From: Arthrobacter stackebrandtii
Lineage (GTDB): Bacteria; Actinomycetota; Actinomycetes; Actinomycetales; Micrococcaceae
Assembly (NCBI RefSeq): GCF_017876675.1
Contig: NZ_JAGIOI010000001.1
Coordinates: forward strand, 1,116,001-1,180,000
Length of the DNA: 64,000 nt
Direction of reading: 5' to 3'
Below the pieces are notes generated by a model. The model made no database searches. It was not told where the DNA came from and worked only from the letters and a program-made list of their open reading frames with translations. Below, piece by piece: positions 41,374-57,438 of the stretch; within the stretch, counting starts at the first letter, position 1, and each line of letters starts with the position of its first letter. The position numbers were made by a program, and so were the translations under genes.

Positions 41374-41463
41374 GGCGATGTGTCCGAGCGGCCGAAGGTG
41401 CAACACTCGAAATGTTGTTCAGGTGAAAGCCTGACGTGGGTTCAAATCCCACCGTCGCCGCCA
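41374..41463 (+). tRNA. tRNA-Ser (anticodon CGA)
   Basis: 90-nt class II tRNA with the long variable arm of serine tRNAs. Acceptor GGCGATG pairs with CGTCGCC, discriminator G, and CCA is encoded. The anticodon arm CAACA-CTCGAAA-TGTTG gives CGA, reading UCG. Confidence 0.95.
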
Positions 41464-41468
41464 ATTGG

Positions 41469-41516
41469 AAGGCGCTTGTTTCGTTGAATTTTCAACGGAG
41501 CAGGCGCCTTTCTTCT
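41469..41516 (+). terminator. Terminator after tRNA-Ser
   Basis: AAGGCGC (41469-41475) and GCGCCTT (41504-41510) close a long imperfect hairpin with inner CGTTGAA/TTCAACG pairing. It is followed by TCTTCTTT. Confidence 0.7.
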
Positions 41517-41652
41517 TTAAAGGATCCGCCCTATTGTGCCGCCCTCTGTGCCATCCGAACCCCACGGACAAACGTGTCAGCCCCCTGTGGCAGACTAATC
41601 ATCGACATCTAGAGGGAGCAATTCCTGCAGGCATTCAGGGGGCATTGGATTC

Positions 41653-42534
41653 ATGACCGTTTGGCTGGACACTGGCATCGACTACAAGGTGGGTGTGCGC
41701 GATGGCAAGGTCATTGCGCTCAACAAAGCCGGCAAGGAACTCAAAACCGTTCCTGCCAAACTCAAGGACAACGAGGTCACCGCGAATCTGCGTGACCTCC
41801 TCGAATGGTTGGCAGGCCACGAACGTGAAGTCGGCGCCCAAATCAATGACTGGATGGTCCAATCCCTGCCGGTCACCACAGAACTTCTGCGCCAAGTGTG
41901 GGCTGATGAAAGCTGGCGCACAGCGCTCACGGATCTTGTCATTGTCCCGTGCTCCTCAACCGGTGTCCCGGCCCCGGGCGATGGACCGTCGGGATTCCTC
42001 CGCAGCGCGGATACCACCGTTGGCATCGGCCTGGTCACCTTGGATGGCGAAAGCGAAGTCCTCGAATCCGAGCATTTCCTCATTGCCCACCCCATTGACC
42101 TCGGCGAGGACCTCGATGACTACCGCGCTTTTGCCGCCGAACTCGGAATCGTCCAAAACACCGCCCAACTCATGCGCGAAACGTTCACCGCCGGCGAGCG
42201 CGACCCCGAGTCAACCAGCATCGCTGACTATGCCGACGGCGAGTTCGAAGCCCTTCAACATGCGACCTCCCGTGCCCGCACGCTGGGCTACGTGGTCAAG
42301 GGCGGATTCGCCGTCTGCAACCTAACCTCCCAGGGCGCACCTGTTCAGGCAAGCTACTGGGTTGGCTCCGGAGATCCTCAATACGAGACCTCCACAGGCG
42401 ATCTCAACTGGGTCAGCGGCGGAACCACCTTGGCGCTCAAAGATGTTGGGGCAGCAGCATTCAGTGAAGGCATGAGGATGGCCGCGGCCATCTATGCAGG
42501 ACGCAAGGTTGAAGCAGGAGACGATGCAGCGTGA
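41653..42534 (+). CDS. DUF4132-type (MolR C-terminal) domain protein
   Basis: 293-residue first gene of a five-gene operon. It has no known catalytic motif. The core matches the C-terminal part of DUF4132/MolR (E. coli YehI) proteins: AGHEREVGAQINDWMV, LRQVWADESWRTALTD and especially EHFLIAHPIDLGEDLDDY followed by GIVQNTAQLMRETF. That domain here stands alone rather than at the end of a ~1200-residue MolR protein. No signal peptide or membrane helix. The 3' end overlaps the next gene by 4 bp. The start ATG has a G-run about 10 nt upstream. Function unknown. Confidence 0.75.
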   Translation: MTVWLDTGIDYKVGVRDGKVIALNKAGKELKTVPAKLKDNEVTANLRDLLEWLAGHEREVGAQINDWMVQSLPVTTELLRQVWADESWRTALTDLVIVPCSSTGVPAPGDGPSGFLRSADTTVGIGLVTLDGESEVLESEHFLIAHPIDLGEDLDDYRAFAAELGIVQNTAQLMRETFTAGERDPESTSIADYADGEFEALQHATSRARTLGYVVKGGFAVCNLTSQGAPVQASYWVGSGDPQYETSTGDLNWVSGGTTLALKDVGAAAFSEGMRMAAAIYAGRKVEAGDDAA

Positions 42535-45500
42535 GCACCACCATGGAGGCTAAGTTGAGTGCGGCGGGTGCCATCGTCGCAACTGATCCGGGAACTGAGA
42601 AAGTAGTGCCTTACGTAGCGTGCAGCTACTCCCACCCAGCTCTTGCAGGTCGCACTGTGGTGCGGGTCCTGCCCCAGGGGCTGCAGGAAGCAGAGGACCT
42701 GGCTCTTTCCACCATGGGGCTGGAAGCAGATTCTTCCGCCACGGTTGGTTTTAGCCGTCGCATCGCCCTCGGCTTCCCGGCCTGGCCGCTGATCCACGAC
42801 CCCTCCAACGCCCGCCATGCGCTGGCGCTCGTCAAGGACCTGGAACGCGCCGCCCGCATGGCCAAGGCCAAGCCCGGCGCCGCCAAGGACGACATCGATG
42901 CCCTTGCCGTCCGGCTCGGATCCAGCGCACCCCATTTTCTGCCCACCTTCTTGGAAGAAGTGGGCCGCATATTCGTGGGCCTCGGCAACCGGCCCATGGC
43001 TGGCCAGTTTTTTGGCCGTGCCCGCACGGCAGAACGCGTCCACAGCCTGGCCATCGATGAAAACCGCCATCGGGAAGTCTTCCTTGAATTCGCCTTCGCC
43101 GGTGCCCTGACGGTCAAGGCCTTGACCGAGGAAGCCAAGGACCTCCCCTCCCGCGTCTCCGCCGAGGAAGCCTACAAGCTCTTCCGCCACCTCAGCGTGG
43201 AACGGGTCGAGGGCGGTCTGCCACCTTACGCGGCCATGGCCAAGGATCTTCGCAGCATGGCCAAGGCAGCCAAACTGGATGCCGTGGCTGAGGACATCTC
43301 CGTCGTCGCCGAGCTCCTTACCGCCCCGTCCACCAAGAGGGCCGTCAAGGGCTTCTGGACCACCTATGCCAAGGCCATCGCTGCGGCAGCCAAGGACGAC
43401 GCCGGTCTCAAGTTAGCGCTGTTAACGTTGTTTCCCAGCGAAGTCGACAGCGCAACGTGGGTCAAGATCCTGCGTGCGGCAGGCGCCGTCGACCTTGCCA
43501 AGGAAGGGGCGGTTGAGCTTTCCACATGGCTGGGGCAGCTCATGGACCACCATCACGGGTCAGGGTGGGGATATCCCGCCGCCAGTCCTGAGCTTGAGGC
43601 GCTGATTGCAGAAATTGGTGCCCTAATTCTCGCCCAGGCGCCGAGCCAGGAGGGCGCCAGGGTGATCGCGCTTACCGCGTGGCGCAATCTCGACCTGGAT
43701 CTTCTGGACGTACTGGCGGAACTGAACCTTGAAGTCTCCTACGGCGATCGTGACCGTGTACCGATCGATGTCAGTGACCACCTCAAGCGGGCCAACAACT
43801 CCCGCAGCTTGGAACATTTGGCCGCATCAGCGCAATGGAAGCCCATCTTGGAACGCGATGTGGTTCATGCCATGGGCCGCTCCACGCGCCCCAACCCACA
43901 CACCAAGCGCGGCGTCACCACTGATGAACTCATGGCACAGCTGGATGCCTACCCTGGTTTGCGCACCGCATTGCGCTCCCACCTCAGCGGGGCCATGGCC
44001 AGGGCGGAGTCCTCACTCTACGAGTTCGGCCGGCTCATGGACCTTGCCGAAAGCCTTGCCTCCCCCACCGCCATGACCATGGTGGGAGACCTGCTAGCCG
44101 ACCTCCCAGCGCCCGACATCGCCGCCCAAGTAGCCGCAGTTTTCAACACTGGGATCATGGATGAGCTGGGTTGGGAAAGCCTGGAAACAACAGTTGCAGA
44201 GTACGAATCACGGGCAAAGGACCGCTCGGTCAGCGTCACTTCTGCATGGCCTAATGCAGTGGTTTTCGATGATGTCCGCGCCACTGTCGTGGGCCGTGAG
44301 GGCATAGTCATTGAGCACACTGCTGTGATTCCCAAGGGCTATGAGCCAGGTAAGTACAGCAGCATTAACTTCACATCCGTTGCGGATGACCTCCTGGTTG
44401 ATTGGTCCCCGGAGAATCACTCCGGTGATTACGCCTATTGGGCCAGCAACCCGCAAGATATTTTCAAAGTTGATGGGGACTGGGTCCCTTCCTGGATCCG
44501 TTCACTGCCCGTGGGTGAGACGGGACGAACCTTTGGGCACCGCCAACTGCAGGTGGGAGAGCGCGCAAAGTTGAAGTACAGGACGGATCCCTTGGCCGGT
44601 GACGGGAAACATTTTTGGCTGGCCAAGAACTACCACCGCCATGAGAAGAAGAAATCGGTCTGGCTGGAATTGGATGTCGCCACCGGTGAAGTGGGCCGGG
44701 AGTCATTCCCTGCCTTCATTTCCACCATTGCCGCACGCCGCGGTGTCACGGTCCAGCCGGAATCCAGCACCTTGCGGCCATTGCCGACCGAATACGCAGA
44801 CAATCCCCTGGGCTGGGCCAACGGTGCGGTGGGACATTGCTGGTACGTCAACGAGTCCGGTGACAGCTGCATTGAACGCCTTGACGGCGTACAGGCGGGA
44901 GGGTTCGTGGAGCTCTCCCGCCGCCGCGATGAACGATACGCCTTCAGTGACAGCCACCTGATGGCATGGCCCGGCGGTTCCCTGGTGCTGGCAATGAGGA
45001 GTCGCCTTGCCAACGCGGGCACGGGCGCAATTGTTTCCGCCTCCGACGGCACCAACCGCTTCCACTATTCAGCGGGGACGACTCATTTGGTAGAGCCGGA
45101 ACACCGGCACAACCTGCGTCCGCGCCACACCCCCACCAGTGAACGGCTACGTACCGTCACTGGTGCGGATCTGGCCGTGTTGGTGTCCGCCACGCAAACA
45201 GCCCCGGCCCGCGACGGTAAACGAGCCGAGTTCACCGCCGCGGAGCAAGCCTCAGTGAACAAGCTTTTCCCAGGCATCCCGTACCCGCTCATGGCTGGCA
45301 TCATGGGCATTCTGCACGGTGCCAAGGCGGATGCTGCCATTGCAGGACACCTGCGCGGCACCGCCATCGGAAGCCTGGGCGGCAGTGGCCAGGGCACCGC
45401 TGAAGAAGCGCGTTCTGCGACAACTGAACTCAGCCGCGCCCAGATTCTTTTCCAAAGGGTGCCTGCCGGGTTCACTTCTCTGACGGGCAGCAGCTACCGC

Positions 45501-47516
45501 GGCAATTACTACTTCAGCGACGACTCGCAGGACGTCTCCCTGACGGGGATGTTCGCCAACATGTCCGCCACGGCAGCCGTCTTGGACAATGCCGCCACCG
45601 CAGGCGGGTTGCAGACAACCACTGATGCCAAGCCCGTAGCTTTCTTCAAGAAGCTGCTGGGCAGGAAATCACCGGAACCCACCGCTCCGGGCGCAACGGC
45701 TGCCGCGGAGTGGGTCAACACCGACGGCTCATGGGTGGAAGTGTTCCAATCCCCTGCCGCCATGATCGCCCAAGGCATGGCCGCCCATACCTCCGCTGAT
45801 GACAAGGACCGCTATGCACTGATTCTGCAAGCCGTCGCCGAATCCGGCCTGGCCAACAGTTCAGGTGAACTGGGCGGTGTTCGCGTCAGGGCAGAAGCAA
45901 GCCGAAATCTGCAGCCCGGGCAGTTGCTCGAAAGCGGCGCCGGAAAGGTACTGCTCGTTGCGAAAGTACCCCAGTCCTACCCCATCGATGAGAGCAAGAA
46001 CTTGTTCGCCGCCGTCGTACACGGGGCACCGTCCTACGAGAAGCTCGGACTGGATCTATTGTTCAGTGTTCCGGCGGAAGCCAGCACCTTAAGTGCTGCG
46101 GACCTGCAGACGGCAGCTGGCCTGCTTGGCTCCGCCCCGGCCGCCACCGACCGGGCGGCTGCCAATGGGGCGCAGGTGCAGGCGTTGGTCGAGGCCACCG
46201 GCATGCTGGAAGAGGAAGCCATTTTCTTGCTGGCAGGCATCCCCGTCCCCGAGCATTCCTGGCACAACTTGGAGAGCGACTTCGTCAAAACCCTGGGCCT
46301 GACCGCCAGCAGCGCAAAGTTGGCCCGGGATACTTTTGATGTCCTGGACCGCTATGAGAAGCGGACCCTTTTGGCCTCCCTTGTGCCAAATAGGGCCAGC
46401 GACTACTTCACGGCCGGTGTGGACGCGGGAAAGGTGGCCACGTGCTGGACGGCACTTTTCGGCCCCAAGATTGAAGTGGAGCCGGAAATTCTGCGGGCTG
46501 CTTTCGCCGGCCTGAAAGGCGTTTCGCACAGCATGGCCCTGATCCGCTGGGCGTTGTCACCAAATACTGACGCCGTGCTCCATCACGGCAGCGTGCTGGA
46601 TTATCTGCAGGCGTGCCTGTGGCTGGCATACAACCTGCCAGCCCGGCATCCCTCTCGCGCCCTGCTGCCGCACAAAATCATGGCCATCCGCGGCAGCCTG
46701 GCCAATTGGACTGAACCTTTACTGGTTGGCACGGACACCAGCAACTCCTTCCGGACCAGCCACGGCCTGCCCAGCAAGCCGCACGGCGCCAAGGCGCACG
46801 CCAAGGAAAACCCGCCGGTGGGCAGCGATTCAATGGGAATCTTCACGGCCAACTACGACATACACAACAGGTGGGAAGAGATTGCCTTTGACCAGATCAC
46901 GGTGAATGCCGCCAAGTTCACGGCTGCGGACCTGCCCGTTTTGGCAACCATAGAGACCCAAGACAGCAGTGCAAACACCTTGCGCACGCTCTTCGATGGA
47001 TCACTGGATGAGTTCTGCGCAGCGCTGTCCGCGGAAAACTTCGCTGCCCCCGGCGCGTTGACCAACCCGCTGGTCAGCGCCCCGGACACGGTTGCCCAGG
47101 CCGTCACGTCCCTGGGTGTTTCGGAGGAGGCCGCCGCGTTGTTCCTGCAATATCTGGCTATGCCTGACCCCACCAATCCCCGGGTACAAAAATGGAACGG
47201 GTGGACCCCGGCCAAACGCACCAAGGCCGGGGCAGAGCTGGAGAAGGCAAAGCTCGTGGTCCGTGCCAAGCGGGCCCGTGCCGGCCGGGAACTGTTCCTG
47301 GACGGCGGCTGGGTTACGCTCACCGGCAGCAACTTGCCAGTGGAGGCCTGGAAAACAGCGCTCTATGGCCTCCCCGTTGGCGACAAACCGCAACTCCCGC
47401 TGGAGAACCTGCTATTGAGTGAAACCCTCCCACAACTCTTTGAGCGTGCCTGGGCCCGTTACGAATCCGGCGACAAACCCCAGTACTCGCAGCTCAAGAC
47501 AGGACGTGGAGCATGA
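42531..47516 (+). CDS. 1661-residue protein of unknown function in MoxR-VWA operon
   Basis: Giant soluble protein without signal peptide or clear catalytic motif. Residues 1-550 look helical and Ala/Lys-rich. Residues about 560-870 are beta-rich with repeated Trp/Gly/Asp-turn segments (VDWSPENHSGDYAYW, GAVGHCWYVNESGDSCIE, DSHLMAWPGGSLVLAM), suggestive of a propeller-like fold. Residues 900-1661 are mixed, ending in KRARAGRELFLDGGWVTL and LYGLPVG, segments I associate with large actinobacterial MoxR-linked proteins. It starts GTG, overlapping the previous stop by 4 bp, and overlaps the MoxR gene by 4 bp. It may be a scaffold or client adaptor for the ATPase; that is a guess. Confidence 0.75.
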   Translation: MSTTMEAKLSAAGAIVATDPGTEKVVPYVACSYSHPALAGRTVVRVLPQGLQEAEDLALSTMGLEADSSATVGFSRRIALGFPAWPLIHDPSNARHALALVKDLERAARMAKAKPGAAKDDIDALAVRLGSSAPHFLPTFLEEVGRIFVGLGNRPMAGQFFGRARTAERVHSLAIDENRHREVFLEFAFAGALTVKALTEEAKDLPSRVSAEEAYKLFRHLSVERVEGGLPPYAAMAKDLRSMAKAAKLDAVAEDISVVAELLTAPSTKRAVKGFWTTYAKAIAAAAKDDAGLKLALLTLFPSEVDSATWVKILRAAGAVDLAKEGAVELSTWLGQLMDHHHGSGWGYPAASPELEALIAEIGALILAQAPSQEGARVIALTAWRNLDLDLLDVLAELNLEVSYGDRDRVPIDVSDHLKRANNSRSLEHLAASAQWKPILERDVVHAMGRSTRPNPHTKRGVTTDELMAQLDAYPGLRTALRSHLSGAMARAESSLYEFGRLMDLAESLASPTAMTMVGDLLADLPAPDIAAQVAAVFNTGIMDELGWESLETTVAEYESRAKDRSVSVTSAWPNAVVFDDVRATVVGREGIVIEHTAVIPKGYEPGKYSSINFTSVADDLLVDWSPENHSGDYAYWASNPQDIFKVDGDWVPSWIRSLPVGETGRTFGHRQLQVGERAKLKYRTDPLAGDGKHFWLAKNYHRHEKKKSVWLELDVATGEVGRESFPAFISTIAARRGVTVQPESSTLRPLPTEYADNPLGWANGAVGHCWYVNESGDSCIERLDGVQAGGFVELSRRRDERYAFSDSHLMAWPGGSLVLAMRSRLANAGTGAIVSASDGTNRFHYSAGTTHLVEPEHRHNLRPRHTPTSERLRTVTGADLAVLVSATQTAPARDGKRAEFTAAEQASVNKLFPGIPYPLMAGIMGILHGAKADAAIAGHLRGTAIGSLGGSGQGTAEEARSATTELSRAQILFQRVPAGFTSLTGSSYRGNYYFSDDSQDVSLTGMFANMSATAAVLDNAATAGGLQTTTDAKPVAFFKKLLGRKSPEPTAPGATAAAEWVNTDGSWVEVFQSPAAMIAQGMAAHTSADDKDRYALILQAVAESGLANSSGELGGVRVRAEASRNLQPGQLLESGAGKVLLVAKVPQSYPIDESKNLFAAVVHGAPSYEKLGLDLLFSVPAEASTLSAADLQTAAGLLGSAPAATDRAAANGAQVQALVEATGMLEEEAIFLLAGIPVPEHSWHNLESDFVKTLGLTASSAKLARDTFDVLDRYEKRTLLASLVPNRASDYFTAGVDAGKVATCWTALFGPKIEVEPEILRAAFAGLKGVSHSMALIRWALSPNTDAVLHHGSVLDYLQACLWLAYNLPARHPSRALLPHKIMAIRGSLANWTEPLLVGTDTSNSFRTSHGLPSKPHGAKAHAKENPPVGSDSMGIFTANYDIHNRWEEIAFDQITVNAAKFTAADLPVLATIETQDSSANTLRTLFDGSLDEFCAALSAENFAAPGALTNPLVSAPDTVAQAVTSLGVSEEAAALFLQYLAMPDPTNPRVQKWNGWTPAKRTKAGAELEKAKLVVRAKRARAGRELFLDGGWVTLTGSNLPVEAWKTALYGLPVGDKPQLPLENLLLSETLPQLFERAWARYESGDKPQYSQLKTGRGA

Positions 47517-48673
47517 ACCAGGTGACGGCGCAGCGCCAAATCAATCCTCCCGAGGCTAGCTACGCTACGGAGCTGGCGTTTCTCAAGGCGTACGACGGCG
47601 GTCCCCGGCCTCCCGGCTGGCAGCTGACACCTGCCGCCGTGGTCACCTTCATCCTCGGCAGCAGCAGCGCGCTGAGCCTGCCCAAGACGGCCCTCACCCA
47701 GGCTGAGGTGAGCTCCGGTGCGGTTCCACAGCGGCTGGCCATCACGCCCAAGTATGTGGGCAGCGCATCGCTGGTGGAGCGGTGCGTTGTGACCCTGGCC
47801 GGCGAGCGCGGACTCATGCTGGTGGGTGAACCAGGCACCGCCAAGTCCATGCTGTCCGAGCTCCTGGCGGCGGCGGTGTGCGGCACCTCCCAGCTCACGG
47901 TGCAGGGCACGGCGGGCACCACCGAGGACCAACTGCGTTACGGCTGGAACTACGCCCTCCTGCTAGCCAAGGGTCCCAGCCCCGAGGCCCTGGTTCCGAG
48001 CCCCGTCATGACCGCCATGACTACCGGGGCGGTGGCTCGCATTGAGGAGATCACCCGCTGCCAGCCCGAAGTGCAGGACGCCCTGGTCTCGCTGCTCTCC
48101 GAACGCCGCATCTTTGTCCCCGAGCTGGGCGAAGCCACGTACGCCGTGCCCGGATTCGCACTGATCGCCACCGCCAACCTGCGTGACCGCGGCGTCAGCG
48201 ACATGAGCGCCGCGCTTAAGCGCCGCTTCAACTTCGAGGTGGTGGACCCCATTGCCGAGCTGGCGCACGAGATCGCCCTGGTCTCGGCGCAAACCACACA
48301 GGCGCTGCGACGGGCCGGTTCCACGCTGACCCCGGACGCTGTCGTCATTGAAACACTGGTCACTGCCTTCCGGGACCTGCGCCAGGGCCGCACCGTGGAG
48401 GGTTGGCCCGTGGAGAAACCCTCCACCGTGCTCAGCACCGCGGAGGCTGTTTCCGTATCCACCTCCATCGCGCTCATGGGCGGCTACTTCGGTGCCGGGC
48501 GGGACCCCTTGGATCTCATCCCCGGCCACCTTCTGGGCGTGGTCCGCAAGGACGACGAGAACGACGCCGTCAGGCTCCTGGGCTACTGGGATGCGGCCGT
48601 GCGCCGGCGCGCCGAGTCAGGCACCCGAACCTGGGCGCGTATGTGGGAGCTGAGGGACGAGCTGCAGGCGTGA
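47513..48673 (+). CDS. MoxR-family AAA+ ATPase
   Basis: 386-residue AAA+ ATPase of the MoxR type, related to E. coli YehL. Walker A GEPGTAKS at 105-112, Walker B VARIEEITR (175-182; glutamates in place of the more usual D-E), sensor-1 asparagine in IATANLRDRG (N222), arginine finger in LKRRFNF (R237/R238). MoxR ATPases act as chaperones with VWA-domain partners, here encoded by the next gene. The C-terminal lid continues to residue 386. GTGA overlap with the next gene; no membrane segment. Confidence 0.92.
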   Translation: MNQVTAQRQINPPEASYATELAFLKAYDGGPRPPGWQLTPAAVVTFILGSSSALSLPKTALTQAEVSSGAVPQRLAITPKYVGSASLVERCVVTLAGERGLMLVGEPGTAKSMLSELLAAAVCGTSQLTVQGTAGTTEDQLRYGWNYALLLAKGPSPEALVPSPVMTAMTTGAVARIEEITRCQPEVQDALVSLLSERRIFVPELGEATYAVPGFALIATANLRDRGVSDMSAALKRRFNFEVVDPIAELAHEIALVSAQTTQALRRAGSTLTPDAVVIETLVTAFRDLRQGRTVEGWPVEKPSTVLSTAEAVSVSTSIALMGGYFGAGRDPLDLIPGHLLGVVRKDDENDAVRLLGYWDAAVRRRAESGTRTWARMWELRDELQA

Positions 48674-51600
48674 GTCCCAAACACGCCCCTGCTTCATACC
48701 GCCAGGAGCCTGCCGACGCGTTGGCCGCTCTGGTGGATTCCCGCGCGCCCTTCCTCATTGGCGTGCGGCACCATTCGGCGGCCCTCGCCGCGTCCATGGA
48801 GGAACTGCTGGACAGCTTTGCCCCGGAGGTCCTGGTCATCGAACTGCCGGCCCAGGCCCAGGATTGGCTGCCGTGGCTAAGCTCGCCGGACACGGTGGCT
48901 CCCCTCGCGTTCGCTGGCGCCGGGGCCGATGGCTACCTGGCCTTCTACCCCTTCGCTGACTTCAGTCCTGAACTCGTGGCCCTCCGCTGGGCCCGCGCGC
49001 ACAATGTACCCGTGCTGTGTGCCGATGCTGCCATGGGCTCGGAACCTCTGGCGTCTACGGATACGTCCGACGCCGGCCACCCCGCCCAGGTGCCCGGCCC
49101 CGCCGTCGAGGGTGAGTCACCCACGGCCTACACCGCTTCTCTCCTGCGGCACACGTCCGCCGACCGGGACGAGCTGTGGGAGGTGCATGTGGAAGCGCCG
49201 GGAGCCGGGGCAGGCGCCGAGGCCATCCGTGTGGCGGGTTTGGGCATTGGCTGGGCACACCGCTGTGATGAGCTGTCGGCGGCCGGATTGGGTCCACAGG
49301 ACGCCTACCGTGAAGCCGTGATGCGCCATGTTCTGCAAGGTGCATTGGAAACGCACCAGCGTGTTGCGGCCGTGGTGGGCAGCTTTCACGCGGCAGCGCT
49401 TCTGGAACCGGCCGCGGATGAGCTGCCTGCTGCGACCACCACGCAGGTGAGCTGTTCTCTGGTGCCTTATGAATTTGCGCACCTGGATTCGCGTTCCGGC
49501 TACCCCTCAGGGGTCAAGGACCCTGCGTGGCAGCAGGGCGTACTGGAAAGCCGCCTGGATGTTGCAGCACTCCGCGAGCACACCATCACCATGGCCACCC
49601 AGGTGGCCCGCGAACTGCGCACTGCAGGACACCCCACGGGCCCGGCCGAGGCCCGCGAGGCCGTGCGGCTCTCGCTGGATTTGGCCGCGCTGCGAGGCAA
49701 CCATGCCGCCGGACGGCGTGAACTCCATGAAGGATTCGCCTCGGTTTTTGCCCAGGGAGATGTTTTGGGCAAGGGCCGGGCCGTGGCACGTGCGGCCCAA
49801 AAGGTGCTGGTGGGCCAACGACGTGGAGCCATCGACCCCTTGGCTCCCCGATCCGGGTTGGTGGTGAGCCTGGCCGAAACCATGACTGCTGCGCGGTTAC
49901 CCTTCGGCCCCGATTTGATGTTGGCGCCGAAGATCTATGACCTTGACCCGTTGCGGACCACCGCTTCCGGAAAGGACGGATTGGACCGGCTCCGCCAACT
50001 GGTGCTGGCCCGCCTGGTCGTAGCAGGAATCCACTACGCCACTGCCCAAGACGTTCAGAGCAGTTTTGGCCCGGCCCTAACCCACCGCTGGAAGGTCCAG
50101 TATGTGGCGGGCACCGTGGCCACAGTGGAACATGCAGCCCTGCGCGGGGTGACCTTGCAACAGGCTGCGGACGGCGCACTCTTGGCAGCGCTGAGCCATC
50201 AAGTGAGAGAACAAGGCCCCACCCCGGCTCAAATCACCGAGGGCTTGAACCGCGCAGCGGGGGCGGACCTGGCAACACCCTTCGCGATGTACCTGTCCGC
50301 GGCGGAGGAGACCTTCCTGGACCGGGCATCGCTGGCAGAGCTCCTGGGACTTCACGATCTTCTGGAGCAACTCAGCGCCGGGCATATTGCCGTCTTTTCG
50401 GCACAGGAGTGGCTGCCGCGAATCACACGGCTGACCCACCTTGTCCTGGCTGCGGCACTCACCCAGGTGGAGGGGCTGCGTGGCAGCAAGGACCCGGAGG
50501 ATGCCACCTCCCTGGGGCGGTTATTCAGGCAACTTCCCACTCCTCCGCTGCGACTGGTCGCCACCATTGGCAGCTTCAAGGACAAGGCCTCACCCCTTAT
50601 CCAAGGCGCGGCCTGGGGCATTCTGGCCTGCTCCGGCCACCTCCCGGAAGACGAGCTCGCCCAGGAACTCAGCGGCTGGATCATCGGATCCAACTCAACA
50701 GAACAACGTGAAAAGCTGGGGCAGCGTCTCACCGGTCTCTGGCTCTGCGCCGGCTCCCTCCTGGAATCCGGCAACGCCGTCATGTCCGGGCTCATCGCCA
50801 CGCTTGAGACACTCAGCGATGCAGCCTTCCTGGAACGCGTTCCGGCCCTGCGCGGCGGTTTTGACGTCCTGAGCCCGGCGGACCGGCAGCGCGTCCTGGA
50901 CTCCGTGCGTTCCCACACGGGGGCAGCTGTGGAAAACAGTTCCGTGGACCCTCAGCTCCTGCTGGCCTGGGCCACGGCCGATCAGCAGGCCTGGGCTTTC
51001 CTGGAATCCAGCGGACTGCGCAACGGCATCACCGCTGTGAACCGTTGGCGTTTGGTGCTGGGTCGTGAGCAGCAGGACCTGGATGGGCCGGGGCGCCGCT
51101 ATGCCCGCAGCCTAGATGAACTGTATGGCCATGGCTCCGGTGAAGGCGCCGAGAGCGACCGGATGGGCCGTGGGGGCGGCCAAGAGGACAGCTTCCCCAG
51201 CGCACGGGTTTGGGCCGATGAGCTGGAGGCGCTCTTCGGCAGCGACGTTCGTGAAGAAGTCCTGGCCCACGCGGTAGCCCGGGGCCGGGCCGATGCTCTA
51301 GGCCAGGTCCGCCCGGATGCCGTGGTGCCTTCCGTTGAGCTGCTGGGCAATGTGCTCAATCTGGTGGGCGCCCTCCCCGAATCCCAGTTGGGCCCGGCTC
51401 GCGCCCTGGTGCGGAGCATCGTGGAGCAGCTTTCCCGCGAGCTGGCCAATGAACTACGCCCCACCCTGCACGGGATAGCCGGGGTACGCACCACCCGGCG
51501 CAAGACCCCGCGAATTGATTTGCCCGGCACCATCCGCGCCAACCTCGCCACAGCCCGGCCACGCGTACTGCATGAACCAGGGAAGGAGCCAGTGGCAGGA

Positions 51601-52158
51601 TGGCAGATCCTCCCGTCCTCCCCCGTGTTCAAAACCCTGTCCAGCAAGTCCTCCACCTGGGACATCATCGTCCTGGTGGATGTCTCCGGCTCCATGGAGC
51701 AGAGCGTTATTTTCGCGGCCCTGACCTCCGCCATCTTGGCTGCTGCGCCCGCATTGCAGGTCCACTTCGTGGCGTTCTCCACCCAGGTACTGGATCTCAG
51801 CGAGCATGTCACGGATCCGTTGGCACTCCTGCTGGAGGTTTCCATCGGCGGAGGGACGGACATCGGCAAGGCACTGGCGTACGCCCGCACACTTATCAGC
51901 CGGCCGCAGAAGACACTGCTCGCCGTCGTCTCTGACTTCGAGGAAGGCGCCTCGGTGCCACGCCTGGTCAATGAATGCGCCGATCTGGCTGCCAGCGGCG
52001 TGCACATGATGGGCTGCGCAGCCCTCGACCGCAGCGGCAACGCAACGTATAACGTCAGCATCGCCTCGCAGTTGGTGGCGGCCGGCATGCCTACTGCTGC
52101 GGTGACACCGCAGGGCCTGACGGCCTGGGTTGCGGAGGTGGTGAAGCGGCATGCCTGA
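48670..52158 (+). CDS. DUF5682-VWA fusion protein
   Basis: 1162-residue protein starting with GTG overlapping the MoxR stop. The N-terminal part is DUF5682 (YehM-like), with IGVRHHSAALAASMEELL, PEVLVIELPAQ, FHAAALLEPAADE and SLVPYEFAHLDSRSGYPSG, resembling the EreA/TraB-type fold with its conserved histidines. The C-terminal ~160 residues are a VWA domain with intact metal site DVSGSM (D1004), GGGTDIG near 1061 and SDFEEG near 1088 (YehP-like). In E. coli these are two proteins. The middle ~200 residues include a Gly/Asp-rich linker (HGSGEGAESDRMGRGGGQED). Expected to be the effector/adaptor of the MoxR ATPase. Confidence 0.85.
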   Translation: MSPKHAPASYRQEPADALAALVDSRAPFLIGVRHHSAALAASMEELLDSFAPEVLVIELPAQAQDWLPWLSSPDTVAPLAFAGAGADGYLAFYPFADFSPELVALRWARAHNVPVLCADAAMGSEPLASTDTSDAGHPAQVPGPAVEGESPTAYTASLLRHTSADRDELWEVHVEAPGAGAGAEAIRVAGLGIGWAHRCDELSAAGLGPQDAYREAVMRHVLQGALETHQRVAAVVGSFHAAALLEPAADELPAATTTQVSCSLVPYEFAHLDSRSGYPSGVKDPAWQQGVLESRLDVAALREHTITMATQVARELRTAGHPTGPAEAREAVRLSLDLAALRGNHAAGRRELHEGFASVFAQGDVLGKGRAVARAAQKVLVGQRRGAIDPLAPRSGLVVSLAETMTAARLPFGPDLMLAPKIYDLDPLRTTASGKDGLDRLRQLVLARLVVAGIHYATAQDVQSSFGPALTHRWKVQYVAGTVATVEHAALRGVTLQQAADGALLAALSHQVREQGPTPAQITEGLNRAAGADLATPFAMYLSAAEETFLDRASLAELLGLHDLLEQLSAGHIAVFSAQEWLPRITRLTHLVLAAALTQVEGLRGSKDPEDATSLGRLFRQLPTPPLRLVATIGSFKDKASPLIQGAAWGILACSGHLPEDELAQELSGWIIGSNSTEQREKLGQRLTGLWLCAGSLLESGNAVMSGLIATLETLSDAAFLERVPALRGGFDVLSPADRQRVLDSVRSHTGAAVENSSVDPQLLLAWATADQQAWAFLESSGLRNGITAVNRWRLVLGREQQDLDGPGRRYARSLDELYGHGSGEGAESDRMGRGGGQEDSFPSARVWADELEALFGSDVREEVLAHAVARGRADALGQVRPDAVVPSVELLGNVLNLVGALPESQLGPARALVRSIVEQLSRELANELRPTLHGIAGVRTTRRKTPRIDLPGTIRANLATARPRVLHEPGKEPVAGWQILPSSPVFKTLSSKSSTWDIIVLVDVSGSMEQSVIFAALTSAILAAAPALQVHFVAFSTQVLDLSEHVTDPLALLLEVSIGGGTDIGKALAYARTLISRPQKTLLAVVSDFEEGASVPRLVNECADLAASGVHMMGCAALDRSGNATYNVSIASQLVAAGMPTAAVTPQGLTAWVAEVVKRHA

Positions 52159-53821
52159 GAACTATCCGCGTGTCAGCGCCCTGCTGCTCGCCGAGGTGTT
52201 GGACTCCCTCCCGGCACGGCTGCGCAAGAAAATCGATCTCGCCCAGAGCGTGGATGCCACCGATCCCGGGCACCTCAGCGACGGCTCGTTCGTGGTCCGG
52301 CAGGGCAGCGCAACGGTCACCTTCACCGCGTCCATTGCGCTGACGCTGGAAGATGTGAGCTGCGACTGCCTCCTTTCCCCGCGCTGCCTTCACCTGGCCC
52401 AGGCGCTGCTGCGCTGCGAAGTTTCCACCGCCCCAGATCCGACGCCGGATGGCTTGGACGGTGCCTCCGTCACCGATTCGGTGGTCACCGTGCCTGCTGC
52501 TGATACTGGTTCCGGCCCCCTGACTCCGGACCAATTGGGGGTGGTGGAACGTTCCCTGGCAGCCTTTGTGAAACTTCTTGGCGCAGGTACGGCGGCGCGG
52601 GATCCCCTGCAACTTGCAACGTTTTTGCGTCTGGCGCACGAGGCCAAGGCCCAACGGCTCTACACCCTCGGTGTGCAGTGCACCGCTGTGTGCGCCGTGT
52701 TGTCCACGCAGGGAACTATTGCCCGAAACTCAGCAGTTACCAACCTCGCGGACGCCTACTTGGCGGCCCACCATTTGGCGCACCGACATGCCCAAGGTGA
52801 GGTTCCGGCGTCGTTCTTGGGGAAGCCGCGCAGAAGCTATGCGGGGAGGGAAGCCCTGTCGCTCCAGGGGATTTTCACGGAACCGATCATTGCCGCAACC
52901 GGGCATGCAGGGGTGGCCACTTATCTGCGGGACAGCGGCGGTGCACTGTGGAGTGTGCATTCCAACATGCCGGTTCTGGGCGGGGACGTCGCAACCGACC
53001 AGGCACGGCAGTACTACCAGCGTGCCCCGCGGCTGGGCGGGATCAGCACCAGCCATCAGGAACTGACGCGGCGCACCCTCCTGGTGAGCAATGCGAAGGC
53101 CAGCGAGGACGGCCGGCTCGGTGCGGCCGCGCAGGTCGCCGCGGTGGCGGGGGCCGTCGGCGACTGGGATCCGCAGTGGTTTGCCGCCGACACCACGGAG
53201 GAGATTGACTTTGTGCGGCTCGAGGTTCGCGGGCTGAGCGGCACTGCGCTGGCGTTGGCCGGGCCGGACGGGAGGATTGTTACGGTACAGCCCAGTGCGG
53301 CGGCCCGTGCGTTGGGGGCCCTGGATGATCTGCTCGAACTGGCCCGGCATCCTGGGACATTGCTGCACTGCGTGCTGCGGCGCACGGTTGACGGCCTGGA
53401 GCTGTTGGCCTTCGCCGTAGACGCCGATCAGATTCGACTGCCGGATTCGTGGCATGGCAGAGTCATGCTGGGATTGGACCGTCTGGCACCGGCATACTTT
53501 AGCTCCCCTTCCCAACAGGCCCGGCAGCTGCCGCCTGTGGCCGCCGGTCCGTGGCCGATCATGATGCAATGGCTGGGCAGGGTCGCCGTGCACGGGCGTG
53601 CCGCGCTGGTGAACGACAGGAGCTCGCTGGCCACCGATGCTGCCCGCCTCCAGGATGCCAATTGTGTTTATGGGGCCCGACTATTGCTCGAATTGCAGGC
53701 CGCTGCTCACCAAAGTTCACGGGCCTTCGACGGAACAATCGTGTATCTTCCTGAGCCCCTGCCCAAAGCGTGGTTGGCCCTGGCGGTGTTTGCGCAGGCC
53801 TGGCTGGCTGCGGCGTCGTGA
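52151..53821 (+). CDS. SWIM zinc-finger protein
   Basis: 556-residue protein related to E. coli YehQ. The SWIM zinc finger is at CDCLLSPRCLH (C71, C73, C79, H81), a CxCx5CxH arrangement. The remaining ~470 residues show no enzyme motif; they include RRSYAGREALSLQGIFTEPI and a beta-rich domain ending in LPKAWLALAVFAQAWLA. SWIM fingers bind DNA or proteins. It overlaps the VWA gene by 8 bp and ends the operon, with a terminator 85 bp on. Confidence 0.85.
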   Translation: MPENYPRVSALLLAEVLDSLPARLRKKIDLAQSVDATDPGHLSDGSFVVRQGSATVTFTASIALTLEDVSCDCLLSPRCLHLAQALLRCEVSTAPDPTPDGLDGASVTDSVVTVPAADTGSGPLTPDQLGVVERSLAAFVKLLGAGTAARDPLQLATFLRLAHEAKAQRLYTLGVQCTAVCAVLSTQGTIARNSAVTNLADAYLAAHHLAHRHAQGEVPASFLGKPRRSYAGREALSLQGIFTEPIIAATGHAGVATYLRDSGGALWSVHSNMPVLGGDVATDQARQYYQRAPRLGGISTSHQELTRRTLLVSNAKASEDGRLGAAAQVAAVAGAVGDWDPQWFAADTTEEIDFVRLEVRGLSGTALALAGPDGRIVTVQPSAAARALGALDDLLELARHPGTLLHCVLRRTVDGLELLAFAVDADQIRLPDSWHGRVMLGLDRLAPAYFSSPSQQARQLPPVAAGPWPIMMQWLGRVAVHGRAALVNDRSSLATDAARLQDANCVYGARLLLELQAAAHQSSRAFDGTIVYLPEPLPKAWLALAVFAQAWLAAAS

Positions 53822-53905
53822 GCCAAAACCACTTGGCGATCTTCACCGTGCCTTGAAAACCTCAACGCAGTACCAATTTGGCGGGAATTGCTAAGCTTGG
53901 ATAAG

Positions 53906-54167: not shown

Positions 54168-54203
54168 AAAATGCCCGCCGCAATAATGCGGCGGGCATTT
54201 TTG
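54168..54203 (+). terminator. Intrinsic terminator of the small-protein gene
   Basis: Perfect 15-bp arms (54168-54182 and 54187-54201) around an ATAA loop, with a TTTTT tail. One of the clearest terminators in the window; the A-run/T-run symmetry makes it usable in both directions. Confidence 0.88.
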
Positions 54204-54271: not shown

Positions 54272-55069
54272 ATGTCAGAGAATGGTGGCATGCCCACTAC
54301 CGCAGCGCCCTCAGGCCCGGCCGCCGCAACTCCCCAGCCCGCGCCGGCACACGAACCCCTCCCCAAGCTCACCCGGGCAGACGGCGAGCCCATCCGCGCG
54401 CTGGTGGTGGACGATGAGCCCGAGCTGGCCGACCTCATGCGCCGCGGACTGGAAATGACCGGCTGGGAGGTGCGGACCGCCAATGACGGCTTCGCCGCGC
54501 TGCGCACGGCCCGGGAATTTGTCCCCGACGTGCTCGTCCTTGACGTCATGATGCCCGGAATGGACGGGGTGGAACTGCTGCAAAAGCTCCGCACCATCTA
54601 CCCGGACGTGCCCGCCCTGTTCCTGACTGCGAAGGATGCCGTCACGGACAAGGTGACCGGGCTGGCGGCCGGCGGCGACGACTATGTCACCAAGCCGTTC
54701 AGCATGAAGGAGGTGCTGCTGCGCCTGCACCGAGTGGTCCAACGCTCCGGGATCACTGCCCCGCAGTTCGCCCTGCTGCAGGTGGGGGACCTGACCCTGA
54801 ACAAGGACACCAAGGTGGTCCAGCGCGACGGGACGGACATCCCGCTGACCGGCACCGAGTTCGAGCTGCTGAAGTTCCTCATGGAAAACCCACGGCACGT
54901 GCTGAGCAAGTCTCGCCTGCTGGACCGCGTCTGGAACTACGACTTCGGCGGCCAAAGCAACATCGTGGAACTCTACATCTCCTACCTTCGCAAGAAGGTC
55001 GATGCCGGCCGGCCGCCCATGATCCACACCGTCCGCGGCTCCGGCTACGTGATCAAGCCGGCACCATGA
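54272..55069 (+). CDS. Two-component response regulator, OmpR family
   Basis: 265-residue regulator: a Pro/Ala-rich leader of ~40 residues, receiver domain with VVDDEPE, phosphoacceptor D91 in VLVLDVMMPGMDG and TKPF lysine near 143, then an OmpR winged helix (LTGTEFELLKFLMEN, SKSRLLDRVWNYDFGGQ, VRGSGYVIKP). Pairs with the histidine kinase whose gene overlaps by 4 bp. An ATG at 54290 would shorten the leader by six residues. The signal and targets are unknown; the copper-type genes downstream are candidates. Confidence 0.92.
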   Translation: MSENGGMPTTAAPSGPAAATPQPAPAHEPLPKLTRADGEPIRALVVDDEPELADLMRRGLEMTGWEVRTANDGFAALRTAREFVPDVLVLDVMMPGMDGVELLQKLRTIYPDVPALFLTAKDAVTDKVTGLAAGGDDYVTKPFSMKEVLLRLHRVVQRSGITAPQFALLQVGDLTLNKDTKVVQRDGTDIPLTGTEFELLKFLMENPRHVLSKSRLLDRVWNYDFGGQSNIVELYISYLRKKVDAGRPPMIHTVRGSGYVIKPAP

Positions 55070-56643
55070 CCAACCCGAGCACCGGTGCCGGCCCGGCCGG
55101 AGGCGCCATGGCCGGCAGCGTCGCCGGGACGAGAATCAGCACCAGGCTCCGCCAGCTGTCCCGCCCGAACCGCTGGCACTTGAGCACTCGCCTGGTGGCC
55201 CTCCTGCTTGCCCTGCTCACGGTCATCGCCGTGCTGATCGGCATGGTCAGCTACGCCACCTTGAGCATGACACTGACCAACCAGTTGGACTCCTCCCTGC
55301 AACAAGCCTCGGTGCGCACCGCCGCGTTCTACGCCAGCGCGCCCGGCACCGGCACGCCCGACCCCCTCGAAGCCCGGGCCACCAGTGCCGGCCAGTTGAG
55401 CGCGGTCCTGAGCAACGGCCTCGTGCACTATGCAGGAATCCTCTCCCCCACCGGCGTGCGGCAGCAGCTCACCACATCCGACGCCGACATCCTCGCCGGT
55501 CTCTCCCCCAACGGCGACGTCAGCAGCAAGCGGCTCTCGATTGGCGGATACAGGCTGCAGGCCGTGGCCGTGCCCGGCGGGGACACCCTGATCACCGGCC
55601 TGCCCCTGGCCGCCACGCAGCAGACGCTCTCCACCCTGGTCCTGTCGATCGTGCTGGTCTCGCTGGCCGGCATGCTGGCCCTGGGCTGGGCCGGAACCCT
55701 CATCATCCGCCGCAACCTGCGCCCGCTCGCACAGCTGTCGGCAACGGCCACCAAGGTTTCCACGTTGAGGCTCGACGCCGGTGAGGTCGCCCTGGGCGTG
55801 CGTGTCCCGGAGGCCGCGGCGCATCCGGGCACCGAGGTGGGCAATGTGGGCCACGCGTTCAACGCCATGCTGGACAATGTGCAGCACGCGCTGGAGGCCC
55901 GCCAGCGCAGCGAGACCAAGCTGCGCCGCTTCGTGGCCGATGCCAGCCACGAACTGCGCACCCCGCTGACGGCGATCCGCGGCTATGCCGAGCTGCTGGC
56001 CATGAGCGAACCCCTCAGCGCCGACGGCCAAACCGCGCTGGGCCGGGTCCAGGACCAGTCTGTCCGCATGAGCCGGCTCGTGGAGGACCTGTTGACGCTG
56101 GCCCGGATCGACGAGGCCCAGCAGTCCGTGGGAGGGACGGCCGGGCGGCCCCTGCAGCCGCTGAACCTGAGTCCGCTGGTCATGGAAGCCGTGAGCGACC
56201 TGCAGGTGGCCACGCCGGACCACACGTGGAGCTTTTCCGTGCCCGACGAACCCGTGGACGTCCTGGGCGAGGACGCGGCACTGCGCCAGGTCCTGCTAAA
56301 CCTGCTGGGCAACGCAGCCAAGCACACACCGGCCGGGACCACCGTCCACACCGAACTGACGGTTTCCCAGGTCGGCTCCTGCACCCTGGCGGTCAGCGAC
56401 GACGGCCCCGGGATCGACCCGGCGTTCCAGCGCATCATTTTTGACAGGTTTTCACGTGCCGACCAGGCACGCACCAGCACCACGGGCAGCACCGGCCTGG
56501 GGCTGAGCATTGTGCAGGGCATTGTCGCCGCCCACGGCGGCACGGTCTCCGTGGCGAGCAGGCCCGGGAGCACCGTGTTCACCGTGCAGCTGCCGCTGGC
56601 GCGTGTCGCCTCGGTCGGCGCCCAAGCCGCGCCCGCACAGTAG
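55066..56643 (+). CDS. Sensor histidine kinase
   Basis: 525-residue membrane kinase: cytoplasmic leader, first helix about residues 43-68, extracellular sensor about 70-185 (LARATSAGQLSAVLSNG-like, no recognised fold), second helix about 188-215, HAMP region, H-box ADASHELRTPLTAIRGYAE with phospho-histidine H295, N-box LLNLLGNAAKHTP, G1 VSDDGPGIDP, F-box DRFSRADQAR and G2 GLGLSIV. It partners the preceding regulator (ATGA overlap). The extracellular ligand cannot be told from sequence. Confidence 0.93.
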   Translation: MTNPSTGAGPAGGAMAGSVAGTRISTRLRQLSRPNRWHLSTRLVALLLALLTVIAVLIGMVSYATLSMTLTNQLDSSLQQASVRTAAFYASAPGTGTPDPLEARATSAGQLSAVLSNGLVHYAGILSPTGVRQQLTTSDADILAGLSPNGDVSSKRLSIGGYRLQAVAVPGGDTLITGLPLAATQQTLSTLVLSIVLVSLAGMLALGWAGTLIIRRNLRPLAQLSATATKVSTLRLDAGEVALGVRVPEAAAHPGTEVGNVGHAFNAMLDNVQHALEARQRSETKLRRFVADASHELRTPLTAIRGYAELLAMSEPLSADGQTALGRVQDQSVRMSRLVEDLLTLARIDEAQQSVGGTAGRPLQPLNLSPLVMEAVSDLQVATPDHTWSFSVPDEPVDVLGEDAALRQVLLNLLGNAAKHTPAGTTVHTELTVSQVGSCTLAVSDDGPGIDPAFQRIIFDRFSRADQARTSTTGSTGLGLSIVQGIVAAHGGTVSVASRPGSTVFTVQLPLARVASVGAQAAPAQ

Positions 56644-56717: not shown

Positions 56718-57380
56718 GTGCCGCACGCTCCCTTCAGGCTGCTCCGAACCACGGTTGTGGGTGCCACGGTAATGGGCCTGGCCGCCGGGGCGCACCTGTT
56801 CGCAGGCGGCACGCTTCCCGCAGCCCCCATCATGGCGGCGCTGCTGGCCCTGCACATACTCGGCACCACCGCAGCAACCCAATTCCGGCTTGCCCTCCCG
56901 GCCATGTCCGGACTGCTTGCCGGCAGCCAGATGGTGCTGCACCAGGCGTTTGAGTCCCTCTCCCACGGGGCACACCTGGGCGCCCAGGCCGGCGCACTCT
57001 CCGGCTCCGCGGCCGGAGCGGCCGCCCACCACACCCAGTCCGCGGAGGCTCACGCGGCGGCCATGCTGGCCCAGGCCGCGGCAGACCCCTCGACCCCGAC
57101 GCTGGCCGCCATGGGCCACGGCCCGATGTCCGGTTGGATGCTCGCAGCACACATCGGCGCCACGCTGGCCGCGGCGGTCCTCCTGGCCCACGGGGAAAAC
57201 GCCCTGTGGGCCCTCGCAGGCTGGCTCCGGCCGCTGTACCGCAGCGCCGCCGTCGTGCTGCCTGTTCCCGCGCAGCCGGCCCACACCCGGGTGCTGCCGC
57301 CACCGCTGCCCCGCCCGCCGTGGCGCAACCTGCGGCCGGACACCAGGCGCGGCCCGCCCCGGCTCCCCGCCTTCGCATAA
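56718..57380 (+). CDS. His/Met-containing membrane protein next to YcnI
   Basis: 220-residue protein starting with GTG, with about four to five hydrophobic helices (near residues 10-28, 36-52, 60-75, 140-160). Histidine- and methionine-bearing stretches lie between them (MVLHQAFESLSHGAHLG, AAAHHTQSAEAHAAAM, MGHGPMSGWM), followed by a Pro/Arg-rich cytoplasmic tail. The metal-ligand-rich loops and the YcnI gene 58 bp downstream suggest a role in copper handling. No family is recognised with confidence. Confidence 0.72.
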   Translation: MPHAPFRLLRTTVVGATVMGLAAGAHLFAGGTLPAAPIMAALLALHILGTTAATQFRLALPAMSGLLAGSQMVLHQAFESLSHGAHLGAQAGALSGSAAGAAAHHTQSAEAHAAAMLAQAAADPSTPTLAAMGHGPMSGWMLAAHIGATLAAAVLLAHGENALWALAGWLRPLYRSAAVVLPVPAQPAHTRVLPPPLPRPPWRNLRPDTRRGPPRLPAFA

Positions 57381-57438
57381 CACCCTTCGACACGGTCGCG
57401 GGGTGTCCCCCCGTCATTTCATTCGAAAGGTTTCACCC

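What the first reader, a model, noticed from the sequence alone, without database searches (positions are those of the whole stretch)
41653..53821. Five-gene MoxR/DUF5682-VWA/SWIM operon with a giant partner: candidate undescribed system
Five genes overlap by 4, 4, 4 and 8 bp in one direction, which is unusually tight over 12 kb. The parts (DUF4132-type domain, MoxR AAA+, DUF5682, VWA with intact DxSxS metal site, SWIM finger) are those of E. coli yehI/yehL/yehM/yehP/yehQ, whose role is unknown. MoxR-VWA pairs act as chaperones or in conflict systems. Two new features here are the fusion of DUF5682 to VWA and a 1661-residue second component with propeller-like repeats in place of a full MolR.
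Basis: partly seen in the sequence, partly recalled or inferred. Interest (0 to 1): 0.85.

Follow-up and report, generated by a model that had tools for sequence, protein, structure and literature searches.

The report
Mobile ATP-powered hydrolase gene cassette
Five tightly packed bacterial genes form one movable cassette beside a tRNA gene; they seem to encode a protein-remodelling motor joined to a predicted enzyme of unsuspected type and a giant scaffold, a variant of an unexplained E. coli gene cluster whose role can now be tested.

Summary
Five genes at 41653-53821 overlap by 4, 4, 4 and 8 bp: DUF4132 (A), a 1661-aa giant (B), a YehL-type MoxR ATPase (C), a DUF5682::VWA fusion (D) and a SWIM-motif protein (E). 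Of 23 other phylum genomes matching D, 7 have the fusion and all 7 carry the five genes in this order. Fusion and giant are thus not unique here; they define an actinobacterial subtype of the cluster E. coli carries as yehI-L-M-P-Q. The cassette is a 12.4-kb insertion at the end of tRNA-Ser(CGA); B is unmatched in the 22 other genus genomes searched. One relative has a restriction-modification enzyme at that site, another a phage-type integrase. New: the DUF5682 N-domain resembles TIKI/TraB hydrolases (His/Glu motifs invariant in 20 of 20; a TraB protein is the top viral fold match; YbaP profile score reached by 1 of 300 shuffles), though one profile test was negative. YehM shares the motifs. 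B probably holds a beta-propeller. Most likely an accessory conflict or stress module in which the MoxR-VWA ring drives or gates the hydrolase; function is inferred. New variant of a known kind.

The parts
41374..41463 (+). tRNA-Ser(CGA), the insertion site
   Evidence: ARAGORN; flank with the tRNA matched in 23 of 23 genus genomes, own included, one of them (G052) over 182 bases only
41466..53873 (.). 12.4-kb insertion holding exactly the five genes; the left edge is uncertain by about 55 bp because 4 of 22 relatives still match to 41511-41518
   Evidence: empty sites of 256 bp (L155) and 213 bp (L156); left-edge matches
41653..42534 (+). gene A, 293 aa, DUF4132; matches the C-terminal part of YehI
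   Evidence: Pfam 1.5e-23; hhalign 97.7%
42531..47516 (+). gene B, giant 1661 aa, no Pfam family; best conserved at the N-terminus and in the last ~180 residues
44232..45038 (+). predicted beta-propeller-like all-beta region of B (residues about 568-836)
   Evidence: AlphaFold2 model, mean pLDDT 68.1; Foldseek matches to propellers, none below E 0.001
47513..48673 (+). gene C, MoxR AAA+ ATPase of YehL type; Walker A GEPGTAKS at 47825-47848
   Evidence: Pfam AAA_5 3.2e-38; Walker A invariant in 9 of 9 including YehL
48670..52158 (+). gene D, 1162 aa, DUF5682 fused to VWA_CoxE
48742..49569 (+). predicted TIKI/TraB-like hydrolase core of D (H34/H35, E58, E215, H240)
51442..52131 (+). VWA domain of D with complete MIDAS
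52151..53821 (+). gene E, 556 aa, SWIM motif CxCx5CxH at 52361-52393

Best explanation
The five genes are one self-contained, horizontally moving accessory module, an actinobacterial subtype of the YehL-type MoxR-VWA clusters. Shown by sequence: the unit, its insertion, the intact ATPase, MIDAS and SWIM motifs and the invariant His/Glu motifs. Inferred: C forms an AAA+ ring; the VWA part of D plugs into it (as in NorQ/NorD) and couples ATP hydrolysis to a TIKI/TraB-like hydrolase in the same chain. The giant B, a helical and beta-propeller scaffold, together with the SWIM protein E and the DUF4132 protein A, senses or holds the target. On a trigger (phage or other invader, or nucleic-acid stress) the ring remodels the complex so that the hydrolase acts on its target or is released from inhibition.
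For: Unit: A-B-C-D-E in 7 of 7 fused-D loci of the phylum survey, in 4 of 4 loci chosen as complete-looking from the hits (E only partly seen in L104 and L105) and on an S. atratus plasmid. The short flanks of these 11 loci share ORFs only in the close pair L044/L045 and one ORF pair of L039/L040. Identity matrices of all ten gene pairs over 8 genomes correlate at r 0.945-0.983, 0 of 2000 permutations each. Mobile/accessory: B in 1 of 23 genus genomes, the own one; right flank follows the tRNA within 213-805 bp in 6 of 10 relatives; the site holds a type ISP R-M enzyme and a resolvase in G592 and a phage-type integrase in G591. Hydrolase: H34, H35, E58, E215, H240 invariant in 20 of 20; of seven weak Pfam families besides DUF5682, two are TraB (2 of 20 members, 0.079) and ChaN (1 of 20, 0.053); hhalign to YbaP 22.2 vs shuffle mean 12.8, 1 of 300 as high; top BFVD match a TraB family protein, probability 1.00, E 4.1e-3. 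MoxR-VWA coupling: PMC9976466 (abstract).
Against: I found no experiment on these genes. PADLOC has no real match. No conventional effector domain other than the proposed hydrolase. The TIKI lines are individually weak: Pfam E-values 0.05-0.08; hhalign probabilities 2-4%; hmmsearch of the same profile against YbaP gave negative scores and did not align the motifs; the TraB fold match has TM 0.43 by target and rmsd 13.7; the 50 listed PDB matches are, by name, mostly helical-repeat and other large assemblies and no TIKI protein. One relative's cargo at the site is restriction-modification, but others are phage or IS genes, so position does not prove defence. Five loci hold B with no match to A, C, D or E within about 20 kb, so B can work apart. 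GC3 of C overlaps that of neighbours.
Confidence: 0.45

Rival explanations
1. A cofactor or maturation chaperone: the MoxR-VWA pair remodels a metalloenzyme (its own DUF5682 hydrolase or a host enzyme) to let a metal in, like NorQ/NorD or CoxD/CoxE, and has no defence role.
For: Studied MoxR-VWA pairs do this (PMC9976466 abstract; PMC3893208 passages); the VWA is CoxE-like; some TIKI enzymes are metal-dependent, others not (PMC6254334 passages).
Against: No shared neighbour gene beside the cassette: flanks differ among loci (short flanks). Patchy presence (1 of 23 in the genus) and tRNA-site insertion are unlike a maturation factor for a core enzyme.
Confidence: 0.25
2. A stress or envelope proteostasis module of the RavA-ViaA sort: a chaperone for large complexes, occasionally transferred.
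For: MoxR proteins act in stress tolerance (PMC3893208 passages); a DUF4132 protein operon of Deinococcus radiodurans is strongly upregulated on DdrO depletion (PMC8533742 passage).
Against: The Deinococcus operon was not examined here and may be unrelated; an intact hydrolase-like centre and a giant dedicated partner exceed a simple chaperone pair.
Confidence: 0.2
3. Recent passenger DNA with no benefit in this host.
For: One of 23 genus members carries B.
Against: All five frames are open and the catalytic and metal sites are intact at 29-70% identity to homologues, so selection has acted over the family's history.
Confidence: 0.07

Closest known systems
E. coli K-12 yehI-yehL-yehM-yehP-yehQ cluster (YehL subfamily of MoxR)
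   Same: YehL-type MoxR, DUF5682, VWA_CoxE, SWIM motif, a DUF4132 protein; same relative order of MoxR, DUF5682, VWA, SWIM
   Different: DUF5682 and VWA are separate proteins there; YehI is one 1210-aa protein whose C-terminal part matches gene A; no giant; E is not detectably similar to YehQ outside the motif
SWIM-DUF5691-MoxR-DUF5682-VWA clusters, found here in family relatives and on a Methylosinus plasmid
   Same: MoxR, DUF5682, VWA, SWIM
   Different: DUF5691 in place of DUF4132 plus giant; VWA unfused; no detectable similarity of B to DUF5691
Beta-propeller MoxR-vWA systems of Kaur et al. 2020 (PMC7159879; passages seen)
   Same: MoxR and vWA core with a large propeller-bearing partner
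   Different: There the propeller is fused to the vWA protein and the third component has a variable N-terminus; our MoxR scores 22.6 bits to bpMoxR, below its cut-off of 27; SWIM, MolR, WGR and DUF4132 do not occur in that paper's main text
TIKI/TraB/ChaN/erythromycin-esterase superfamily
   Same: Two His motifs in the same order; top viral fold match is a TraB protein
   Different: Divergent, no significant family match, followed by a long helical region and a VWA domain
MoxR-vWA pair of jumbo phages with a metallopeptidase fused to the vWA (PMC7824862, passage seen)
   Same: A hydrolase-type domain fused N-terminal to the VWA co-chaperone
   Different: Not compared by sequence here; proposed role there is virion assembly

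Membership tests
YehL-type MoxR/VWA/DUF5682 cluster (E. coli yeh) | YehL-type MoxR ATPase | tested here: met
   47% identity over 380 columns, E 2e-96 to YehL
YehL-type MoxR/VWA/DUF5682 cluster (E. coli yeh) | DUF5682 protein and CoxE-type VWA | tested here: met
   Pfam 2.8e-129 and 2.6e-51, in one chain
YehL-type MoxR/VWA/DUF5682 cluster (E. coli yeh) | YehQ-like SWIM protein | tested here: inconclusive
   motif invariant in 8 of 8; no Pfam hit; BLAST to YehQ E 4.6
YehL-type MoxR/VWA/DUF5682 cluster (E. coli yeh) | full-length YehI/MolR-type DUF4132 protein | tested here: not met
   only the DUF4132 part is present as A; B does not match the rest of YehI (shallow alignments)
TIKI/TraB superfamily (DUF5682 domain) | two His motifs and catalytic Glu residues (2His/2Glu) | tested here: met
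   H34/H35, E58, E215, H240 in 20 of 20; same motifs in YehM. Which residues would be catalytic is inferred
TIKI/TraB superfamily (DUF5682 domain) | significant sequence-profile match | tested here: not met
   Pfam TraB 0.079 in 2 of 20, ChaN 0.053 in 1 of 20; hmmsearch to YbaP negative score, hhalign 2.1%; hhalign 22.2 reached by 1 of 300 shuffles
TIKI/TraB superfamily (DUF5682 domain) | parallel beta-sheet core fold | tested here: inconclusive
   alternating strands and helices in a model of pLDDT 83.4, strand directions not examined; TraB top in BFVD, E 4.1e-3, rmsd 13.7; none among the 50 listed PDB matches
TIKI/TraB superfamily (DUF5682 domain) | hydrolase activity | not testable with these tools
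   needs protein
Kaur beta-propeller MoxR-vWA systems | propeller fused to the vWA component | tested here: not met
   Pfam finds only DUF5682 and VWA-type domains in D
Kaur beta-propeller MoxR-vWA systems | bpMoxR-type ATPase | tested here: not met
   22.6 bits against a cut-off of 27
Catalogued anti-phage systems | match to PADLOC-DB 2023 models | tested here: not met
   only one weak hit, 0.014, for C

The most novel reading that the evidence does not exclude
A new class of ATP-driven immune machine: a YehL-type MoxR ring with its VWA plug covalently joined to a TIKI-family peptidase or esterase, switched by a 1661-residue solenoid-propeller receptor and a SWIM finger, and carried between actinobacteria as a five-gene cassette; E. 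coli yehLMPQ would be its simpler relative.
Probability: 0.3. Interest if true: 0.87.

Novelty: new variant of a known kind. Interest (0 to 1): 0.62.

Why it matters
YehL names one of the seven MoxR subfamilies (PMC3893208, passage seen), and none of my paper-search listings pointed to a function for yehLMPQ (most listed papers not opened). If DUF5682 is a TIKI-type hydrolase, the whole cluster family gains a testable active site. The five-gene subtype gives a compact mobile unit, with its ends located, that can be moved into a laboratory Streptomyces and challenged.

Tried and rejected
B as a YehI/MolR or DUF5691 homologue: hhalign gave nothing, with shallow alignments. PDB by sequence: nothing for B or E; for the DUF5682 alignment five hits, best E 0.0094 to a designed helical-repeat fusion; for A six weak unrelated hits, best E 0.026. 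PDB Foldseek with the whole DUF5682 model listed no TIKI protein by name. ChaN homologues: 1 of 149 phylum genomes; TraB: 2 of 296; too few for an alignment, so YbaP stood in. hmmsearch of the DUF5682 N-domain against YbaP: negative score, motifs not aligned. Erythromycin-esterase profile: score 27.1, best of seven profiles compared but probability only 4%. The two-segment shuffle test (0 of 300) partly measures how often a second segment is reported at all. A copy of the tRNA 3' end at the right edge: none in the window. NCBIfam: only weak AAA-type hits for C. PHROGs: a 378-position family matches the VWA part (1.5e-52) and another the DUF5682 part (1.7e-12); of 50,697 phage records one, unannotated, matched D. 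The genome-contig scan with D gave one weak locus. The promoter scan found nothing for the operon.

Rows dropped: of the 13 loci L046-L058, the DUF5682 alignment A6 took 12; L051 was left out because its DUF5682 lies in two frames. Of the 16 phylum genomes with unfused D, 9 were examined (8, one); for the other 7 I rely on ORF lengths, where G245 shows only the VWA part. Of the 35 genomes with a B match, 16 regions from 14 genomes were opened (G218, G302 and the G377 main locus had been opened). Flank ORFs were filtered by length (100 aa) and GC3 (0.84).

Full report
What is there. Five same-strand genes fill 41653-53821 with overlaps of 4, 4, 4 and 8 bp. A (293 aa) is DUF4132; B (1661 aa) matches no Pfam, NCBIfam or PADLOC model up to E 1 and no PHROG up to 0.1; C (386 aa) is an AAA_5/MoxR ATPase; D (1162 aa from the GTG at 48670) is DUF5682 followed by VWA_CoxE; E (556 aa) has no family match but a SWIM motif.

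How widespread. DUF5682 is rare in the window's own family: 6 of 197 genomes, own included. With D as query 24 of 396 phylum genomes match, own included. In 7 of the 23 others DUF5682 and VWA lie in one chain, and all 7 carry A, B, C, D and E in that order; 9 of the other 16 were examined and have separate genes. Four more loci that I chose among the B hits match all five families (L103-L106; E only partly seen in L104 and L105), as does a named Streptomyces atratus plasmid by its annotation: DUF4132, 'DNA-binding protein', AAA family ATPase, DUF5682, hypothetical protein. Of 72,556 plasmid records 40 match D, 5 of them, all Streptomyces, over 80% or more of it. B matches in 35 of 81 genomes of the genus of G377, probably Streptomyces by the named hits (inferred). 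Not all B loci are complete: L093-L097 have B alone among the five families, L101 has A and a shortened B, and L098-L100, L102, L107 and L108 hold partial B matches, with an A-like stretch in L098. B therefore also exists outside the cassette.

Three architectures. Type 1, as in E. coli: a YehI-like DUF4132 protein, MoxR, DUF5682, VWA, SWIM (L059, L056, L069, and L046 with a partial DUF4132 ORF at the contig edge). Type 2: SWIM, DUF5691, MoxR, DUF5682, VWA. DUF5691 similarity occurs in 10 of the 13 loci L046-L058, including all five family relatives L047-L051, sometimes on the other strand. A SWIM-like motif was seen in 8 of these 13 loci and not in the ORFs listed for L051, L053, L054, L055 and L058. 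A Methylosinus plasmid has the full type 2 order. Type 3 is the window's. Gene A matches the C-terminal DUF4132 part of YehI (hhalign 97.7%); B matches neither YehI nor DUF5691.

One unit. Identity matrices of A to E over eight genomes correlate at r 0.945-0.983 (0 of 2000 permutations as high for each of ten pairs); shared ancestry of the genomes may add to this. In the flanks of 11 type-3 loci, a few kilobases each, ORFs are shared only in the close pair L044/L045 and in one ORF pair of L039/L040.

A clean insertion. tRNA-Ser(CGA) ends at 41463. The region with the tRNA matches in 23 of 23 genus genomes, own included; in 18 of the 22 others the match stops within 20 bp of the tRNA end and in 4 it runs to 41511-41518. 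The right flank returns at window 53874, 256 bp after the left match in L155 and 213 bp in L156, against 12.4 kb in the window. In four further relatives (L161-L164) it returns at 54358-54364 after 221-805 bp. B is found in 1 of 23 genus genomes, the own one. Cassette GC is 0.641 against 0.664 for the rest of the window; GC3 of the five genes is 0.68-0.85 (C highest) against 0.82-0.91 for five other ORFs. I saw no integrase among the five genes and no second copy of the tRNA end, so the mechanism of insertion is open. Of the ten relatives whose stretch was taken (one, L157, only 3 kb), L159 holds a type ISP restriction-modification enzyme, a resolvase and a transposase between the flanks; L158 a phage-type integrase and a minor-tail-like gene; L160 an IS110-type transposase next to the tRNA (in L158 and L160 the right flank was not reached). 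The site is thus a hotspot for mobile cargo, in one case defence cargo.

DUF5682 as a TIKI-like hydrolase. In 20 DUF5682 sequences of types 1-3 the residues R33, H34, H35, E58, E215, G237 and H240 never vary; YehM has the same motifs. The AlphaFold2 model of D 1-800 (pLDDT 83.4) places the first motif after a strand, E58 in the next strand and the second GxxH after a later strand, followed by a long helical region. Pfam scans of the 20 members give seven weak families besides DUF5682; two are TraB_PrgY_gumN (2 members, best 0.079) and ChaN (1 member, 0.053). Pfam's own line calls ChaN Tiki superfamily, and an abstract writes Tiki/TraB family. hhalign against E. coli YbaP, annotated TraB family, aligns both motifs in the right order; the top score of 22.2 was reached by 1 of 300 shuffles. 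Foldseek against BFVD ranks a TraB family protein first, probability 1.00, E 4.1e-3, TM 0.43 by target length. Against it: hmmsearch with the same profile scored YbaP below zero and did not align the motifs, hhalign probabilities are 2-4%, the TraB superposition has rmsd 13.7, and the listed PDB matches show no TIKI protein. Together I put the assignment at 0.75; on recounting I lowered it from 0.8 for the negative hmmsearch and the rmsd. The 2His/2Glu centre is described in PMC6254334 (passages seen). Which Glu are catalytic here is inferred.

The giant. The AlphaFold2 model of B 475-1661 (31 sequences, mean pLDDT 68.1, pTM 0.57) shows helices, then 23 strands of three or more residues at B 568-836, then helices and smaller sheets. 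Foldseek matches named as propellers or WD40 domains include Vps18 (probability 0.98, E 0.021), PAN2 and WDR91; the best E is 3.9e-3, to a nuclear pore chain, and none is below 0.001. B 1-474 was not modelled. A propeller in B is likely, not proven.

Intact machine parts. Walker A, E178/E179, N222 and R237/R238 of C are invariant in 9 of 9 including YehL; MIDAS in D 8 of 8; SWIM Cys/His in E 8 of 8.

How it most likely works. In NorQ/NorD a MoxR hexamer is plugged by a VWA domain and remodels its target (PMC9976466, abstract seen). By analogy C is the ring and D's VWA the plug, with the hydrolase in the same chain, so that ring movement could open, position or feed the hydrolase. B, A and E would recognise the trigger or hold the target. 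The accessory distribution and the hotspot favour conflict with invaders over housekeeping, but this is inference. Confidence 0.45, with maturation-chaperone and stress models as rivals.

What is known. DUF5682 and DUF5691 occur in no paper of the library. DUF4132 occurs in three: passages of two were seen and the third in the listing only; none of this concerned such a cluster. For the yeh gene names six papers were listed and not opened. Kaur et al. 2020 (PMC7159879, passages) describe other MoxR-vWA conflict systems; this one fails two features of their propeller type. The library holds only open-licence papers, so absence in print is not proven.

Noticed in passing
L159:2790-15310 (G592): The same tRNA-Ser site in a relative holds a 1675-aa type ISP restriction-modification enzyme, a resolvase, a pentapeptide-repeat protein and a transposase.
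   Followed up: partly
L158:2560-19901 (G591): After the same tRNA another relative has a phage-type integrase and a minor-tail-like gene, so the tRNA is a general integration hotspot.
   Followed up: partly
L093-L097: Stand-alone giants (B only) in five genomes of the genus of G377, without match to A, C, D or E.
   Followed up: partly
L098:3841-6609: A protein with Macro and ADP-ribosyltransferase domains lies beside a partial B locus.
   Followed up: no
L167 (Methylosinus trichosporium plasmid NZ_CP119872.1): A type 2 cluster sits near a Phd/VapC toxin-antitoxin pair, a recombinase and transposases.
   Followed up: no
L166 (Escherichia coli plasmid NZ_CP103756.1): A chromosomal yehI-to-mlrA segment sits between IS26 copies on a plasmid typed conjugative; resistance genes lie next to it.
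   Followed up: no
window 54168-54201: Perfect 15-bp inverted repeat with a 4-bp loop right of the insertion.
   Followed up: no
window 54272-56643 and 56890-58158: A response regulator and histidine kinase pair followed by a DUF1775 protein lies right of the insertion; this flank is matched in 7 of the 10 relatives compared.
   Followed up: partly
window 37215-38195: FGE-sulfatase type (formylglycine-generating enzyme-like) gene upstream of the tRNA.
   Followed up: no
MT835988.1 (hit H1): A 14-kb unannotated phage record from human faeces encodes a DUF5682/VWA relative (27% identity over 63% of D).
   Followed up: no
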